From a virus, in IMG/VR virus record IMGVR_UViG_3300032157_000035, positions 1-35,678 of that record: DNA of 35,678 nt. One strand, given 5' to 3'. Under the pieces are notes generated by a model. The model was not told the DNA's origin, did not search any database, and saw only the letters and a program-made list of their open reading frames with translations. Both the position numbers and the translations under genes were made by a program. This document shows positions 18,718-24,882 of this stretch, piece after piece (positions within the stretch are counted from its first letter, which is position 1; the number at the start of each line of letters is the position of its first letter).

Positions 18718-19056
18718 ATGTGTCTGACTAATATCAAGAAGCTTAAGAAAGCACCTCGCCGCCGCAAGGCGTGGAAGGTAGTATGTAAAGATAGGCGGCC
18801 ACTTGCATATACGTGGGCAGTTAGCTGTGGCTATAAAAAAGGGATGGTGTATGCTAAGGTAGATATAGTGGGACGCCAAGATGCACTAGGATACCATGTA
18901 TTCACAGACAGGATGGAAGCACGTCATGAAGCCTATAGATGTCGCGCTGCCAGATTGATAACCGTTGAGGTTGATCCTCGTGACTGGGTAGCCGATGGGC
19001 TGAACAACGGTGACACAAAGGGTGCTATCTACCGAGTGATACGCATCCTGACTTGA
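18718..19056 (+). CDS. Phage protein of unknown function, basic N-terminus
   Basis: The ATG at 18718 follows AAGGAG by 7 bases, a near-perfect start. An in-frame ATG at 18493 would run through the structured element and was rejected. The 112-residue product begins MCLTNIKKLKKAPRRRKAWK, then has a beta-rich body with GYHVFTDRMEARHEAYRC and a second part ending in a beta strand. The pattern of a cysteine-containing GYHVF domain resembles a widespread small phage protein, but I cannot name it. It lies between the two tRNA-like elements. Confidence 0.65.
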   Translation: MCLTNIKKLKKAPRRRKAWKVVCKDRRPLAYTWAVSCGYKKGMVYAKVDIVGRQDALGYHVFTDRMEARHEAYRCRAARLITVEVDPRDWVADGLNNGDTKGAIYRVIRILT

Positions 19057-19064
19057 AGAACAGC

Positions 19065-19269
19065 GGGAGGTTGATTGATTCGATAGACTGACGGTTGCAG
19101 TTGAGGCACGTTAGAGGTGTTGAGCACGTAGGTAGAGCACCAGTTTACTGGGGGTCGCAGGTTCGAGTCCTGCCACATCTATATCAAAAGATGTGTAGCT
19201 CAGGTATGTCAGCATAGCTAATGAAAGTAAATACAGTACCCGTACTAATCTATCTTCGATCAACCTCCC
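19065..19269 (+). ncRNA. Permuted, anticodon-less tRNA-like element
   Basis: Outer stems: GGGAGGTTGAT (19065-19075) with ATCAACCTCCC (19259-19269), GATAG (19082-19086) with CTATC (19250-19254), CTGAC (19088-19092) with GTCAG (19208-19212). Inside are the tRNA arms in permuted order: D-stem GAGC (19135-19138) with GCTC (19198-19201); CCAG/CTGG (19140-19151) in the place of the anticodon arm with only a TTTA loop; T-arm GCAGG, TTCGAGT, CCTGC (19157-19173); acceptor CACATCT (19174-19180), loop ATATCAAA, AGATGTG (19189-19195) followed by TA and GCTCAGG. All stems pair perfectly in this order. Read linearly, the copy starting at 19113 has an acceptor mismatch and no D-stem. No CCA is encoded. Five anticodon-loop bases are missing, so it cannot decode. 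It could also be a decayed tandem tRNA pair. Confidence 0.55.
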
Positions 19270-19294: not shown

Positions 19295-20230
19295 ATGAAG
19301 AAGATTCACACCTACACCTTGGGTGCTGACCCTGAAATGTTTGTCCGTAGCATAGGTGGGGACATTGTACCTGTGTGTGGTACAGTGGGGGGTACCAAGG
19401 CACGGCCGATGCCATTCTCTGAAGCTTTGACTCGGACGTTGAAGGACGGGACAAAAGTACCAAGAACCATCCAGTCTCAGTACGCTTTCCAAGAAGATGG
19501 TGTTGCCTTTGAGTTCAACATCAGACCAGCATTGGATTACGGACAGTTCGAAGAGAACATCAACTACACGCTGGGCTTATCAAACGAGGTGTTGGGCAGA
19601 GCTAAGCTAACGTATGACACAACGCTTTCCTCTCACAGGTTCAGCGAACAAAGCTTGCAGCATCCGGGTGCAATGACTATTGGGTGTGATCCGGACTTCT
19701 GTGCGTACGGCCCCAACTACAAACCTATCGAGCGAGAGCCCTTTGGAATCAAGGACTTAGGACTATGGCGTCACACAGGCGGGCACCTACACTTCGGCTA
19801 TAACAAAGAACTGATACCAGACTATGCGTTTATCCAGTTGGTGGATGCGTTGGTGTACCTGCCAGTGCTAACAAAGGACAAGCAACGAGGACGGCGCAAA
19901 CTGTACGGCTTGGCAGGTCTGTATAGACCGAAGCCTTACGGTGTGGAGTACCGCACGCCGTCTAACTTCTGGTTGAACGATATCCGTCTAGTATCGGCAC
20001 CGTCATTCAATCTTCTGTTCGATGTGCACGTGCGGACAGATGAGATTAACTCAGCATACATGCAGTTACCCATCGATGATATCAAAGCGTGCATCGATGC
20101 TGGCGGCAACGACGATACAACCCGTCTAATTAAGACTGTGAAAGAGATATGCGCGGCCAACCATCTTGAATGCGTCAACAACTTCCAGTCTAAGAAGGCT
20201 CACTATCTCCAGACATGGGCACAAGGATGA
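19295..20230 (+). CDS. COOH-NH2 ligase-type amidoligase
   Basis: The product has 311 residues. The opening YTLGADPEMFVR is the signature of the phage COOH-NH2 ligase family related to glutamine synthetase and gamma-glutamylcysteine synthetase. It is followed by GVAFEFNIRPA (residues 69-79, catalytic Glu in the first part of the active site), GCDPDFCAYG (residues about 128-137), HTGGHLHFGY (about 159-168) and GVEYRTPSNFWL near residue 215, all placed as expected for the metal and ATP sites. These enzymes join a carboxylate to an amine with ATP. The substrate is unknown. It is the first gene of the peptide-ligase operon, begins 25 bases after the tRNA-like element, and has GAGG before the ATG. 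Its stop overlaps the next start as ATGA. Confidence 0.88.
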   Translation: MKKIHTYTLGADPEMFVRSIGGDIVPVCGTVGGTKARPMPFSEALTRTLKDGTKVPRTIQSQYAFQEDGVAFEFNIRPALDYGQFEENINYTLGLSNEVLGRAKLTYDTTLSSHRFSEQSLQHPGAMTIGCDPDFCAYGPNYKPIEREPFGIKDLGLWRHTGGHLHFGYNKELIPDYAFIQLVDALVYLPVLTKDKQRGRRKLYGLAGLYRPKPYGVEYRTPSNFWLNDIRLVSAPSFNLLFDVHVRTDEINSAYMQLPIDDIKACIDAGGNDDTTRLIKTVKEICAANHLECVNNFQSKKAHYLQTWAQG

Positions 20231-20859
20231 TAGAAACATCTGACATCGAAGACATCGGTGACGTTGGTCGATTCGCACAGACGAATTGGTACGCGTGGAC
20301 CCGACAAGATGACGGTACTGTGACAAGGGCTGCGTTCATCACGGCTACGTCAGGTCCTGCTATCCTCGTACGTCTGTACGACTTGGATGGATCGTATATA
20401 GACGACATCATAACATTGGACAAGTTCCTAAAACTCGAACAGGGATACTACAAATCTCGCTTCGTCGAATACAATGGCAGTATCGTGTACGTTCGTAACA
20501 CAGGTGCAAACGAGGGAACACGAAACCACGGATTCAACACTTCTGCATATGAGTTAGCCCATGTGCATCCACTACTTACCCACAGCTTGTCTGAACAATT
20601 GGCGTATATCGTAGCCATTACTGCGCTATCAAAAAAGCGTACCGCATTCAGCGACGCACTATCTATTCTGGACAGAGGAGAGGCAGTAGGCTGTGCACTA
20701 TCTGACAACTATGGACTTATCACTACGGATAAATCAGACGCCATTCAAATCGTAAGAAGGTCTCGTACCATAGGGGAGATACGGTACGGCATGCCTTCAG
20801 TATACCCACAGTACAAACAGTATACCTTCACGGTGACAAAGTTATGCCGACGTTCATAG
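20227..20859 (+). CDS. Unknown protein of the amidoligase operon
   Basis: I place the start at ATG 20227, which forms ATGA with the ligase stop; another in-frame ATG lies 12 bases upstream. The 210-residue product begins MIETSDIEDIGDVGRF. The N-terminal half is beta-rich (WYAWTRQDDGTVTRAAF). The C-terminal half is helical, then ends with a basic strand. It has no recognised catalytic motif. It lies between two amidoligase genes, so it may carry substrate, or regulate or modify the product, but this is inference from position. Confidence 0.7.
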   Translation: MIETSDIEDIGDVGRFAQTNWYAWTRQDDGTVTRAAFITATSGPAILVRLYDLDGSYIDDIITLDKFLKLEQGYYKSRFVEYNGSIVYVRNTGANEGTRNHGFNTSAYELAHVHPLLTHSLSEQLAYIVAITALSKKRTAFSDALSILDRGEAVGCALSDNYGLITTDKSDAIQIVRRSRTIGEIRYGMPSVYPQYKQYTFTVTKLCRRS

Positions 20860-21863
20860 AATCTCTTCATATACCGGCAATGGTATACGACATGAACGAG
20901 CAACCAGCATCAGTTCCTAACGCAGCAGGTCGTAAGAACATGCGTGTACGAGAATTGTGGCTACCTCAACGTTCATGGGTTAAACCTGTCGGAGTGTCTT
21001 CGTCCTTGCTAGAGGACAACCTCACGATGTGTGGCGTGGAGATAGAATTAGAGGGATACCCTGTCAAAATAGAGGGCGCTATCCACACCCTGTGTAATGG
21101 AATAGTGCTACCAGCGTCAGTGTCCGCCCATCACGACGGCAGCTTGCGCAACGGTCCTATCGAATTCGTTACGACCCCTTGTCGAGGTAAGGACTTGATA
21201 TCCAACCTCGATGTGATCCAGGCCACAGCAACCACGTTGAAGCTTAAGACTAGCAATAGGGCTGGCGTACACATACACGTTGACTGCCAACAGCTCCGAC
21301 CTGAGAACGTGATGAACATACTCAAGTTGTACACCTTGTTGGAACCTATAGTCTTTGCACAGGTGGCACGCCACAGATCAGGATCGCTGTACTGCAAGTC
21401 ATGGTTCGAGGGTACTGACAATGCAGAGCTGGCTAATGCGCTGACGCAACTAGATAGCGGAATGGCATGGAGAATGCGAAGCCGTTACCATGGGTTGAAT
21501 ATAAATTCTTTGCTTAAGCATGGTACATTGGAGTGGCGTCACTTACAGAGTACCTACAACAGCAAGGACATCGTGTCGTGGATCAATTTCATCACACGTA
21601 TCTATAACCACGCCCAAAATCTTCCGCCAATTACTGATGAGATGGTAGTTAATATGACTCCGGACAGTCTTGTACGGTCCGTGTTCGGCAGTTCGTACGT
21701 TACTGTGCCATACGATTACCCATCTCAATTCTGGCAGAACTGTGTGCCGTTGTGGTTCGAGTTGTTCGGACCACCAGCACCTGTCAGCACTCTGTCATGG
21801 GATAGGAGTGCGCCCCCCAAGGTACATCCGGGTTACACCAAATTCATTTCGCGTAAGAAGTAA
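20844..21863 (+). CDS. Putative amidoligase (second, Amidoligase_2-like)
   Basis: This 339-residue protein has MCGVEIELEGYP near residue 62, HHDGSLRNGPIEFVTTP around residue 95, and AGVHIHVDCQQL around 140, in the order and spacing of the putative amidoligase family (glutamine synthetase-like fold). The GVEIE and DGSL..EFVT parts supply metal- and substrate-binding acidic residues, and HIHV gives the nucleotide-side histidines. A later HGTLEWRHLQST (about 225) completes the fold. Two different amidoligases in one operon suggest two successive or alternative bonds. It overlaps the preceding gene by 16 bases. Confidence 0.83.
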   Translation: MPTFIESLHIPAMVYDMNEQPASVPNAAGRKNMRVRELWLPQRSWVKPVGVSSSLLEDNLTMCGVEIELEGYPVKIEGAIHTLCNGIVLPASVSAHHDGSLRNGPIEFVTTPCRGKDLISNLDVIQATATTLKLKTSNRAGVHIHVDCQQLRPENVMNILKLYTLLEPIVFAQVARHRSGSLYCKSWFEGTDNAELANALTQLDSGMAWRMRSRYHGLNINSLLKHGTLEWRHLQSTYNSKDIVSWINFITRIYNHAQNLPPITDEMVVNMTPDSLVRSVFGSSYVTVPYDYPSQFWQNCVPLWFELFGPPAPVSTLSWDRSAPPKVHPGYTKFISRKK

Positions 21864-21881
21864 CACAAGGCAGCCTCTCAA

Positions 21882-23279
21882 ATGTGTGGTATCGTAGGCT
21901 ATATCCAGCAGGGCAATGTCGACGCCCATTGGGATGACAAGTATCGAGGAGCTTTGAGCGATCTCATCTTCATGGACACACTCCGTGGGTACGACAGTAC
22001 TGGTATCTTGGTGGTTCCGAAACACAAGCCCAAGGATACTTTCATCCTAAAGAAGGCTATACCCGGCCCAATGTTCCTTGAGCTAGAGGCATACAAGCGT
22101 GTGCTAGAGGCTCAACGACAGCCCGGTATATACTTAGCCCACAACCGAGCAGCTACCAGAGGCGCAGTGTCTGATGACAATGCGCACCCCTTCAAGGTAG
22201 GGCACATTCATCTGGTGCACAATGGATCAGTCAACCACCATGTCTTGCGAACGGGCATCGATCACAAGGTAGACTCTGCTCACATAGCGCACGCCATATA
22301 CACGTTGGGCGCTGCATCTGCACTGCCTCAAGTAGATGGGCCGGCAGTGTTGGTGTGGTGGGATTCTAAAGAGAACTCGATGAATGTTGCGCGTACTAAA
22401 GATCGCAACATCTACTGGATATTCGATGAGAAGGGTACGTGTTGGTTCGCATCTGAACGAGAGATGATATGGGCTGCGGCAGTGCGCAACCACATAGGTC
22501 TTATCGGAGAGTTCTACAATCCTCCTGAGTATCACCATTTCAAATGGATGCTAGGACAATCGGATAACAAGCTTGGACAAATCATCAAGAATAAGTTCGA
22601 CGAGTACAAGTATGTACCTCCTCCGCACAATCCGTTATGGGACAGAAAGGAGCAAGTCGTATTGGGGGAAGCCCTCCAGCGGGACTTAGCGAAGAAGAAG
22701 GAGCAGCATGGTGGGACTGGGTATTGTCCGGCCGGGACGCCGACGACTGAGAATCCTATCAAACGTCACGAGGTATTCGGGAAACGCAAGATCAAGAAAG
22801 TTGGCGGAGAGTTGGAACGCTACGGCCTTGTCTTAGGACAAGAGATCGAAGTAACCCAAGTCAAGTGGCAGGCTGACAAGGTAGACAAATTGATGGGTGA
22901 CATCGAATGTCTGTGGCCTGCGAAGGGTATGAAGGTGTTACTTCCTGATGTTCCTGTGTCTTTGTTTCATAGGAACGCTAGTGGCAAGCATACCGTACAA
23001 GTGTATAACGTTATCAAGACGTTGGTTCCTAAGGAAGGTAGGCACGAACCTGTACTTTATGCTAAGTCCATACCTTACTCAATGTCCGATCTGGTACAAG
23101 GGCCGAAAGGCAAGCTCATACCAAAGGATGAGTTCATCCGGCTAGCACAGCCGGGGTGTGGATACTGTGGCCGTGAGGTACAGGTAGACGCCCACGAAAC
23201 TATCAGTTGGCTACAGGGGGACAGACCTCTGTGCCGCATATGCAGTGTTACTAAAGAACGAGTGGAGAATTTACCGTGA
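21882..23279 (+). CDS. Class II glutamine amidotransferase with C-terminal extension
   Basis: The product has 465 residues. The N-terminus MCGIVGYIQQ puts the nucleophile at Cys2 after Met removal. RGYDSTG (about residue 35), AHNRAATRGAV (about 86) and HLVHNGSV (about 110) are the glutamine-site motifs of the PurF/GlmS/AsnB-type domain, which covers about residues 1-210. It releases ammonia from glutamine, presumably for one of the neighbouring ligases. The rest has no synthase domain: a Lys-rich beta part, then a CxxC pair CGYCGREVQ and a CRIC near the end, a zinc ribbon. Thus the acceptor enzyme must be another gene of the operon. It overlaps the next gene by 4 bases. Confidence 0.85.
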   Translation: MCGIVGYIQQGNVDAHWDDKYRGALSDLIFMDTLRGYDSTGILVVPKHKPKDTFILKKAIPGPMFLELEAYKRVLEAQRQPGIYLAHNRAATRGAVSDDNAHPFKVGHIHLVHNGSVNHHVLRTGIDHKVDSAHIAHAIYTLGAASALPQVDGPAVLVWWDSKENSMNVARTKDRNIYWIFDEKGTCWFASEREMIWAAAVRNHIGLIGEFYNPPEYHHFKWMLGQSDNKLGQIIKNKFDEYKYVPPPHNPLWDRKEQVVLGEALQRDLAKKKEQHGGTGYCPAGTPTTENPIKRHEVFGKRKIKKVGGELERYGLVLGQEIEVTQVKWQADKVDKLMGDIECLWPAKGMKVLLPDVPVSLFHRNASGKHTVQVYNVIKTLVPKEGRHEPVLYAKSIPYSMSDLVQGPKGKLIPKDEFIRLAQPGCGYCGREVQVDAHETISWLQGDRPLCRICSVTKERVENLP

Positions 23280-23995
23280 ACAAACTTGCAGTGTACGGTA
23301 CCCTGAAGGCAGGGCATCACAACCACTGGCGTATCGAGAACGGGGTGTACAAATACCTAGGCGCTACATGGTTGGAGGACTTGGCCATCAAGGATGAGGG
23401 ACAGTACCCGTCCTTGTTCCGCTTCCCAGGTAAACGGGCGTACTGTGAAGTCTATGAGGTAGACGACAAGATTCTGGAACAGTGCGACATCCTTGAAGGG
23501 GTGAAGCATGGATGGTATCTACGTGATACCGTAGCCACACGATACGGAAACGTATTCGTGTATACCCGTACTCATGCTGTGCTCGATAGCGAGAAGGACT
23601 TCTGGTATCCGGACGGTATCTGGGACAAGGATGCCTATCGCACTCGGTGGCTGGGGTGGGAGGAAGAGACCAAGATTCTGGTGAAGCTTCAACCACATGC
23701 AGCAAGACAAGCGGCAGCCGAAAAGCGAGCGTCGCGCCCGGAATCTGGCGGCACTATCATCTTGCCTGAGGAGATGACCCCAGAAGAGAAAGAGAAGTAT
23801 GAGTACAACGCATCTACGGATACATACTCCCCTCCTCCACGGCAGACGGGACGATGCTACAAATCCGTGGATGAGGATGGTAATGTGGAGTACATTCCTA
23901 TTGCCGTCCGAGCAGAGCAGAACAAGAAGGCAAGCGAGATGGTACAAGATGCCATCACTACCAATCCCAAGATGCCTGAGGTAAAGCAAGCATGA
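23276..23995 (+). CDS. Gamma-glutamylcyclotransferase-like protein
   Basis: The product has 239 residues from GTG 23276, overlapping the previous stop as GTGA. NKLAVYGTLKAGHHNH is the YGTL-type nucleotide-sized pocket of the cyclotransferase/AIG2-like fold, followed by GRAYCEV-type strand AYCEVYEVDDKILEQCD and GWYLRDTV. The catalytic acid would be among the Glu residues of that middle part. Residues 130-239 are a charged, helical and Pro-rich extension. Such enzymes cleave or transfer gamma-glutamyl amines, so this one may remove or rearrange a gamma-glutamyl group made by the ligases. Confidence 0.75.
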   Translation: MNKLAVYGTLKAGHHNHWRIENGVYKYLGATWLEDLAIKDEGQYPSLFRFPGKRAYCEVYEVDDKILEQCDILEGVKHGWYLRDTVATRYGNVFVYTRTHAVLDSEKDFWYPDGIWDKDAYRTRWLGWEEETKILVKLQPHAARQAAAEKRASRPESGGTIILPEEMTPEEKEKYEYNASTDTYSPPPRQTGRCYKSVDEDGNVEYIPIAVRAEQNKKASEMVQDAITTNPKMPEVKQA

Positions 23996-24882
23996 AAAAG
24001 CTGGGTATAATCTACGCCCCTCGCCTATCGGCGTCGGCTGCTGCGCTGGCCTCAGCCGTCCCGCTGTACCGAGTAGGGCCTGAAGGATTCAAGTCCAAAG
24101 CTGGTGAACGGTTCCACGACAAGAACATTGACAATTTCACTATGATTAATTGGGGAGCCAGCGCCGGGCCATGGGAGCTGGGTCCCCACGGCGGTATGAG
24201 TGACGCTGTGGACGAGTGGACCAACACCCGAAACGCAGTCAAGACCGCTCTGTCCAAACTCAAGACCTTAACCATCCTCAAGGAAGCTGGCGTGCCTGCA
24301 CTTGAGGCCACAGGAGATACGAGTGTTGCCGAGCAATGGTATAACGAGGGGTTACTGGTACTGGCCCGCAGAGACGGTCTAAGTGGCGGCAGAGGGATAA
24401 CCAAGCTGCACAAAGATACACCGACTACTGGGTTCCCCATCGTAGATTTCTTTGTCAAGTACTGGAAGAAAACGCACGAGTACCGAGTCCATGTGTTCCG
24501 TCGGCCGGACAGTGATGGTTGGCAGGGGCCGAGTACTCCGCTGCCGTCACACAATGTGATCGACATTCAACAGAAGCGTAGGCGTACCAACTGGGACGGT
24601 CCGTACGACCCCATGATTCGCAACTTCGACAACGGGTGGGTGTTCTGCCATGACAATATCAAGGGAACAGAGACCGAACTTGAATCTATCAAGACTACAG
24701 CGAGACAAGCTGTTGCTGCACTTGGGCTCGACTTTGGGGCTGTCGATATTCTCGCTAGATTCAATGAGGCGGGGACTCTACGGAAGCATGTGGTGTGTGA
24801 GATCAACACCGCTCCGGGTCTCGAAGGTAAAACTCTAGACTGTTACGTACAAGCAATTCGAGGTTATATCAATGGCTTATAA
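23992..24882 (+). CDS. ATP-grasp ligase
   Basis: This is a 296-residue protein. Residues 1-70 look like a pre-ATP-grasp Rossmann domain (KKLGIIYAPRLSASAAALAS). Then follow TLTILKEAGVP (typical lead into the first ATP-grasp lobe), VLARRDGLSGGRGI (the glycine-rich, Lys/Arg-containing flexible loop), HEYRVHVFRR, and the metal-site segment LDFGAVDIL..VCEINTAPGL at about 244-280, whose Glu and Asn bind magnesium. ATP-grasp enzymes form amide bonds through an acyl-phosphate. It shares ATGA with the previous gene. Together with the amidotransferase and amidoligases it makes a full set for building or editing a peptide-like bond. Confidence 0.88.
   Translation: MKKLGIIYAPRLSASAAALASAVPLYRVGPEGFKSKAGERFHDKNIDNFTMINWGASAGPWELGPHGGMSDAVDEWTNTRNAVKTALSKLKTLTILKEAGVPALEATGDTSVAEQWYNEGLLVLARRDGLSGGRGITKLHKDTPTTGFPIVDFFVKYWKKTHEYRVHVFRRPDSDGWQGPSTPLPSHNVIDIQQKRRRTNWDGPYDPMIRNFDNGWVFCHDNIKGTETELESIKTTARQAVAALGLDFGAVDILARFNEAGTLRKHVVCEINTAPGLEGKTLDCYVQAIRGYINGL

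What the first reader, a model, noticed from the sequence alone, without database searches (positions are those of the whole stretch)
19065..19269. Candidate circularly permuted, anticodon-less tRNA-like RNA upstream of the ligase operon
The 3' half of a tRNA (D-stem 3' strand, reduced anticodon arm, T-arm, acceptor 3' strand) lies upstream of its matching 5' half (acceptor 5' strand, TA, GCTCAGG). In this order all arms pair perfectly: acceptor 7/7, D-stem 4/4, T-stem 5/5 and CCAG/CTGG. In the linear reading from 19113 the acceptor has a mismatch and the D-stem fails. The acceptor is closed by an 8-base loop and the whole is nested in three more stems, including a perfect 11-bp one. Five anticodon-loop bases are missing, so it cannot decode. 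Permuted tRNA genes are known from some algae and archaea; I know of none described in a phage. Possible roles: a decoy for tRNA-processing or tRNA-cutting defence enzymes, an RNase P/RNase Z mRNA processing site, or a leader that senses aminoacyl-tRNA supply for the peptide-ligase operon starting 25 bases later. The rival explanation is a decayed tandem tRNA pair.
Basis: partly seen in the sequence, partly recalled or inferred. Interest (0 to 1): 0.82.

Follow-up and report, generated by a model that had tools for sequence, protein, structure and literature searches.

The report
Phage Y RNA mimicking permuted tRNA
Just ahead of a peptide-ligase operon, this small phage carries a hairpin RNA whose tip imitates a tRNA cut open at an unusual point; it belongs to a so far undescribed subtype of the bacterial Y RNAs that normally sit beside the Ro60 and RtcB RNA-repair genes, but here no such gene is in sight.

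Summary
Window 19065-19269 folds into one long hairpin whose head is a tRNA permuted at the D-loop, with a 4-bp anticodon stub. It is not a decayed tRNA pair. Nine further RNAs with the same permutation were found in bacteria and phages. A covariance model built from five of them, without the window, finds the window at 67.2 bits (E about 1e-15); other Y RNAs and tandem tRNAs score at most 38 with it. All seven unpinned acceptor pairs change on both sides. All nine relatives lie beside a Ro60 (Rsr) gene, most in rsr-Y-rtcB RNA-repair operons that also hold canonical YrlA Y RNAs. The element is therefore best read as a phage Y RNA. YrlA is already known as a circularly permuted tRNA mimic, and Y RNAs are already reported from phages. 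What is new is the D-loop break point, the anticodon stub, and an orphan copy: neither this contig nor 29 related phage contigs hold Ro60. Most likely it works through the host's Rsr, or blunts the tRNA-damage response; that step is inferred. A Ro60-binding site in the stem was not demonstrated. New variant of a known kind.

The parts
19065..19087 (+). 5' arm of the outer stem (GGGAGGTTGATTGA, bulge TTC, GATAGA)
   Evidence: MFE pairing and shuffles; pairs with 19249-19269
19091..19130 (+). 5' arm of the middle and inner stems (ACGG 19091-19094; CGTTAG 19109-19114; GTGTTGA 19117-19123; CGTA 19127-19130)
   Evidence: MFE; pairs with CCGT 19240-19243, CTAATG 19218-19223, TCAGCAT 19209-19215, TATG 19205-19208
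19131..19138 (+). D-loop end GGTA plus D-stem 3' strand GAGC (19135-19138): the tRNA is broken in the D-loop
   Evidence: conserved in all ten members
19140..19151 (+). anticodon stub: 4-bp stem CCAG/CTGG with tetraloop TTTA
   Evidence: the same stub with GCAA, GAAA or TTCG loops in L409/L411, L410, L145
19157..19173 (+). T-arm, GCAGG-TTCGAGT-CCTGC
19174..19195 (+). acceptor stem as a closed hairpin: CACATCT, loop ATATCAAA (19181-19188), AGATGTG; no CCA
   Evidence: all seven pairs show two-sided changes across members
19196..19201 (+). TA plus D-stem 5' strand GCTC (19198-19201), pairs back with 19135-19138
19202..19269 (+). 3' arm of inner, middle and outer stems, ending with the perfect 11-mer ATCAACCTCCC 19259-19269
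19124..19215 (+). match to the leave-one-out covariance model R2 of D-loop-permuted Y RNAs
   Evidence: 67.2 bits, E 1.4e-15, filters off; next best place in the window 12.6 bits
19295..20230 (+). first gene of the downstream operon, phiEco32-like COOH-NH2 ligase; the RNA fills the gap between it and the gene ending at 19056
   Evidence: PF14395, ORFs; neighbour, not part of the RNA

Best explanation
It is a phage-borne Y RNA of a D-loop-permuted subtype. A long double-stranded stem, which in known Y RNAs is where the ring protein Ro60/Rsr binds, carries a tRNA-like head: D-stem, 4-bp anticodon stub, T-arm, and an acceptor stem closed into a hairpin so that it has no free ends and cannot be charged or decode. 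Shown here: structure, homology to a family, covariation, and Ro60 linkage of all other members. Inferred: it is transcribed with the downstream operon and probably cut out of, or left in, that transcript as a roughly 205-nt hairpin; it binds the Rsr (or PNPase and tRNA-handling enzymes) of the host and so occupies or redirects the host's Rsr/RtcB RNA-repair and RNA-decay system, which is switched on by cut tRNAs (shown in Salmonella after DNA damage, PMC7790460). Identity as this Y-RNA class about 0.88; host-Rsr mechanism about 0.4.
For: A model of five other sequences scores the window at 67.2 bits, E 1.4e-15, while other Y RNAs and tandem tRNAs reach at most 38.1 with it. Ten-sequence covariation: 95.5% of cells paired, 11 of 20 pairs with two-sided change, 0/500 shuffles, slid controls at most 42%. 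All nine other members lie beside Ro60: L409/L411 in RtcR | Ro60 - Y array - RtcB-like order; L417-L419 between Ro60 and an RtcB relative and L420 beside Ro60; L410 beside Ro60; phage L195/L293 directly upstream of Ro60; phage G001 as Y, D-loop Y, Ro60, RtcB. In Rhodobacteraceae the five genomes with model hits above 50 bits are all among the 24 of 390 that have Ro60 (p = 6e-7). Canonical YrlA above the Rfam cut-off lies in the same arrays. Rfam YrlA itself touches the window core (23.6 bits). Eighteen of 26 phage contigs picked only for permuted tRNA-like RNAs encode Ro60. Isolated relatives of this phage infect Rhodobacteraceae.
Against: No Ro60 (PF05731, PF25045) in the window or in 29 related phage contigs; the window is a fragment. 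The outer stem is longer than in the relatives and does not match the Ro60-binding part of Rfam YrlA (match limited to model 27-81). The host is unknown, and only about 6% of Rhodobacteraceae genomes have Ro60. No close phage relative carries the RNA. No expression data.
Confidence: 0.7

Rival explanations
1. A decayed tandem tRNA pair: the first tRNA lost its anticodon and 5' half, the second lost its 3' half; the pairing between them is left over.
For: The linear reading still scores 33.4 bits with Rfam tRNA; the upstream stretch 19113-19130 is 13/18 identical to the downstream 5' half 19189-19206, p about 0.004, a trace of tandem duplication; related phages carry ordinary tRNAs.
Against: Nine further RNAs share the same permutation and mostly a shortened or capped anticodon arm next to Ro60, with compensated acceptor changes. 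The outer arms pair far beyond chance. The linear fold is 14 kcal/mol worse. No relative has an intact tandem pair at this site.
Confidence: 0.04
2. A cis-acting element of the ligase operon: the long hairpin and tRNA-like head are cut by RNase III, RNase P or RNase Z to mature the mRNA or set its translation, with no Ro60 involved.
For: It fills the 238-nt gap between two co-directional genes and ends 25 nt before the start codon of the ligase gene; no promoter-like or terminator-like site of its own was found; the long perfect stem is a natural RNase III target (general knowledge).
Against: Relatives of the RNA are Ro60-linked and not tied to ligase genes; phages with the same operon lack the RNA. 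The acceptor is closed and has no CCA, so RNase P/Z maturation is not expected.
Confidence: 0.17
3. A tRNA decoy or inhibitor against host tRNA-cutting defences, acting by itself.
For: PMC7790460 reports that Salmonella YrlA is not cut by the anticodon nuclease and suggests it could act as a competitive inhibitor; the head here keeps the D, T and acceptor helices.
Against: The anticodon loop that most such nucleases recognise is missing; no defence or counter-defence gene family was seen beside it in the proteins scanned.
Confidence: 0.12

Closest known systems
YrlA bacterial Y RNA (Rfam RF02553; Salmonella rsr-yrlBA-rtcBA, PDB 6CU1)
   Same: Long basal stem plus a tRNA-like head that is a circularly permuted tRNA with a closed acceptor hairpin (PMC11472068, PMC8394870); occurs with Ro60/Rsr and RtcB; same T-arm, acceptor hairpin and TAGCTC order.
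   Different: In YrlA the D-arm is a local hairpin and the break lies towards the anticodon stem; here the break is in the D-loop, the D-stem is closed by the two distant halves, and an anticodon stub is present. Rfam YrlA scores only 23.6 bits on the window and 29-48 on the bacterial relatives, below its cut-off of 69.
Phage Y RNAs next to Ro-like RNA-binding protein genes (e.g. Streptomyces phage Quantum, Xanthomonas phage Olaya, Streptomyces phage BRock)
   Same: Phage-borne permuted tRNA-like RNA in an intergenic gap.
   Different: Those have a local D-arm and a nearby Ro60 gene; this one has a D-loop break and no Ro60 in the contig.
Permuted tRNA genes of red and green algae and some archaea
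   Same: 3' half upstream of 5' half (general knowledge).
   Different: Those are processed into working tRNAs with an anticodon; this RNA has no anticodon, no CCA and a closed acceptor loop, and its homologues are Y RNAs.
Rfam tRNA (RF00005), linear
   Same: 33.4 bits in the linear reading of 19115-19181.
   Different: 14 kcal/mol less stable than the permuted fold, not called by ARAGORN.

Membership tests
Bacterial Y RNA (broad class) | tRNA-like module joined to a long stem formed by the RNA's two ends | tested here: met
Bacterial Y RNA (broad class) | circularly permuted order with closed acceptor hairpin | tested here: met
   leave-one-out model
Bacterial Y RNA (broad class) | genetic linkage of this RNA subtype to Ro60/Rsr | tested here: met
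   Met for all nine other members of the subtype
Bacterial Y RNA (broad class) | a Ro60/Rsr gene in the same genome as this particular copy | tested here: inconclusive
   None in this contig, but the contig is a fragment and the host is unknown
Bacterial Y RNA (broad class) | Ro60-binding sequence in the basal stem | tested here: inconclusive
   Bacterial relatives carry GGCGAATGC / CTTGTCGCC; the window stem has only a loose resemblance (TTCGAT / ATCTTCGATC) and Rfam YrlA does not extend into it
Bacterial Y RNA (broad class) | binds Ro60 and is expressed | not testable with these tools
   needs binding assay and RNA-seq
YrlA (RF02553) | reaches the Rfam gathering score of 69 bits | tested here: not met
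   23.6 bits, model 27-81 only
YrlA (RF02553) | local D-arm downstream of the acceptor hairpin | tested here: not met
   local D costs 7 kcal/mol and has pair probability 0
Functional tRNA (linear or permuted) | 7-base anticodon loop and a processable acceptor end | tested here: not met
   4-base loop, closed acceptor, no CCA
Decayed tandem tRNA pair | relatives with intact linear tRNAs at the site, no covariation between halves | tested here: not met

The most novel reading that the evidence does not exclude
A small phage carries a Y RNA of a previously undescribed D-loop-permuted class without any Ro60 gene, and uses it to seize the host's Rsr/RtcB RNA-repair system, or to act alone as a tRNA-shaped inhibitor of tRNA-damage signalling.
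Probability: 0.35. Interest if true: 0.75.

Novelty: new variant of a known kind. Interest (0 to 1): 0.58.

Why it matters
It shows that Y RNAs reached tRNA mimicry with at least two different cut points, D-loop and anticodon side, often side by side in one rsr-Y-rtcB array, which suggests that the tRNA shape, not a particular topology, is what is selected. It gives a covariance model that finds a class below the Rfam cut-off. The orphan copy in a phage makes it possible to ask directly what phages gain from Y RNAs when they do not bring Ro60.

Tried and rejected
Linear tRNA reading (33.4 bits, 14 kcal/mol worse). Canonical YrlA fold with local D-arm (7 kcal/mol worse). Decayed tandem pair (covariation and nine homologues). 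Ro60 in the window or in related phages, with two Pfam models (none). Direct nucleotide homologues in known phages: only short tRNA-like matches, although four of the listed hits fall in Streptomyces phages of the Quantum/Kradal group at an unannotated spot just upstream of a Ro-like gene. RNA upstream of the amidoligase in related phages: absent in L003 and the other contigs inspected. Ro60 consensus in the window stem: suggestive at best. Many model R1 hits in Rhodobacteraceae at 42-46 bits are about 115-145 nt long and were taken to be tandem linear tRNAs; they were set aside.

Full report
What is there. The window is one IMG/VR virus record of 35,678 bases. Its terminase is about 54-57% identical to those of phages isolated on Lentibacter, Celeribacter and Roseobacter (Rhodobacteraceae), and up to 67% identical to uncultured contigs; it has podovirus-type structural and replication genes. 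Between a gene ending at 19056 and a phiEco32-like COOH-NH2 ligase starting at 19295 lies a 205-nt inverted structure. The region folds at -84 kcal/mol, z = -4.3; the outer arms alone pair far beyond 1,000 shuffles, and the perfect 11-bp repeat is the only one of its kind in the window. Forced folds rank permuted (-80.1) above YrlA-like (-73.1) and linear (-66.3).

First lead. A sensitive Rfam scan gave two weak readings: a linear tRNA (33.4 bits) and, over T-arm, acceptor hairpin and D-strand, YrlA, the bacterial Y RNA (23.6 bits). YrlA is known to be a circularly permuted tRNA mimic (PMC11472068) with a Ro60-binding basal stem (PMC8394870), and lies in rsr-yrlBA-rtcBA operons switched on by cut tRNAs (PMC7790460).

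Phage Y RNAs. A pattern scan for T-arm, short gap, TAGCTCAG in viral contigs, followed by a structural filter, brought up many permuted tRNA-like RNAs. Eighteen of 26 such contigs encode Ro60 (TROVE). In annotated phages, a permuted tRNA-like RNA lies within about 1 kb of the Ro-like gene, usually just upstream, in eight or nine of twelve examined. These have a local D-arm, as in YrlA. The window differs: its D-stem is closed between the two halves, so the break lies in the D-loop. Only two viral contigs shared this break, L145 and L195. In L195 (L293) the RNA is directly upstream of Ro60; in L145 (L292) the order is Y RNA, D-loop-break RNA, Ro60, RtcB.

Bacterial relatives. The single scan of bacterial genomes with the D-loop-break pattern returned four stretches; three fold exactly like the window core. 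L409 (Natronohydrobacter MAG) and L411 (Rhodobacteraceae MAG) lie in the order RtcR | Ro60 - array of about six Y RNAs - RtcB relative; the RtcB call rests on similarity to L417, which Pfam recognises as RtcB. L410 (Acidobacteriaceae MAG) lies beside a TROVE protein. A search of 395 Rhodobacteraceae genomes with model R1 gave five matches above 50 bits, all beside Ro60, 122-208 nt away in the four new ones; only 24 of 390 genomes of the family have Ro60, so the coincidence has p = 6e-7. The same arrays hold canonical YrlA above the Rfam cut-off.

Is the window a member? A covariance model from the five other sequences (A2, R2) was run over the whole window with filters off: 19124-19215 scores 67.2 bits, E 1.4e-15, and the next place 12.6 bits. 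The same model over 51 loci gives 46.9-87.8 bits to D-loop-break members and at most 38.1 to anything else, including YrlA-type Y RNAs and tandem tRNAs. The E-values are rough because calibration is short, but the bit gap is wide. On ten sequences 95.5% of cells pair, 11 of 20 pairs have two-sided changes, all seven acceptor pairs among them; 0/500 shuffles reach this and slid controls pair at most 42%. Caution: the D-stem and the T-loop were partly fixed by the search pattern, so the D-stem cannot show covariation; the acceptor and most of the anticodon stub were not fixed. Five of the other nine also have a four-base loop on the stub, so the short anticodon arm is a feature, not a deletion scar.

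What is not shown. No Ro60 gene lies in the window (PF05731, PF25045) or in 29 related contigs (PF25045 was run on 28 or 29 of the same contigs). The window is probably incomplete (longer relatives run to about 45-51 kb), so Ro60 may be missing from the assembly, or the RNA may use the host's Rsr. The Ro60-binding sequence seen in bacterial relatives (GGCGAATGC / CTTGTCGCC) is not clearly present in the window's longer stem. Related phages with the ligase operon lack the RNA, so it is a lineage-specific acquisition and not a conserved leader of that operon. No separate promoter or terminator was seen.

Mechanism. Most likely a Y RNA: stem for a ring protein, head as a tRNA look-alike that cannot be charged or decode. 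In bacteria Rsr-Y RNA links to PNPase or serves RNA repair (PMC8394870, PMC7790460). A phage version would occupy or redirect the host's Rsr system, or blunt signalling by cut tRNAs. The identity rests on tests here; the mechanism is inference. The cis-processing and decoy readings remain open rivals.

Novelty. YrlA as a permuted tRNA and Y RNAs in phages are known (PMC11472068; PMC12282133, which cites Chen et al. 2014, a paper not held here). I found no description of the D-loop-permuted subtype in the papers I could read, but several Y-RNA papers are not held. New variant of a known kind.

Noticed in passing
L151:5198-5264, L160:2832-2892, L164:2084-2151, L167:645-710, L173:7355-7412, L407:506-568: Tandem chains of D-arm, short anticodon stub, T-arm, acceptor hairpin, D-arm in viral contigs, as if several permuted tRNA mimics were strung together; none has a normal anticodon arm.
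   Followed up: no
L393:2478, L395:2047, L396:2839, L397:2687, L399:2364, L403:2477, L404:4935: Unannotated Y-like permuted tRNA RNAs close to Ro-like genes in named phages (BRock, CcrColossus, Olaya, Quantum, Marchewka, LuckySocke, Atuin).
   Followed up: partly
G010, G011, G017, G018, G019, G020, G022, G024 (loci L071, L073, L098, L102, L111, L113, L120, L034): Eight of 26 contigs with Y-like RNAs show no Ro60 by TROVE or vWA_Ro60, including contigs of 200-241 kb: Ro60-less phage Y RNAs may be common.
   Followed up: partly
L409:1980-2860: One rsr-rtcB gap holds about six different Y RNAs, some with a local D-arm, one or two with a D-loop break, some without a clear tRNA head; most share GGCGAATGC / CTTGTCGCC ends.
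   Followed up: partly
L409:356-1993: Pfam TROVE misses this alphaproteobacterial Ro60, while vWA_Ro60 (PF25045) and NCBIfam Rsr find it; surveys with PF05731 alone undercount.
   Followed up: yes
window 19113-19130 and 19189-19206: 13 of 18 bases identical, p about 0.004: a trace that the permuted RNA may have arisen by tandem duplication of a tRNA-like unit.
   Followed up: partly
window 19295-24882: Operon of COOH-NH2 ligase, Amidoligase_2, class II glutamine amidotransferase, gamma-glutamyl cyclotransferase and a ligase matching the PHROG for ribosomal protein S6 glutaminyl transferase.
   Followed up: no
L378:1386-1461: A related phage (G034) has an ordinary tRNA-Trp about 1.1 kb upstream of its amidoligase gene, unrelated in sequence to the window RNA.
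   Followed up: yes
L102:9181-9694: A GOLLD RNA in a large tRNA array that also holds at least two Y-like permuted RNAs.
   Followed up: no
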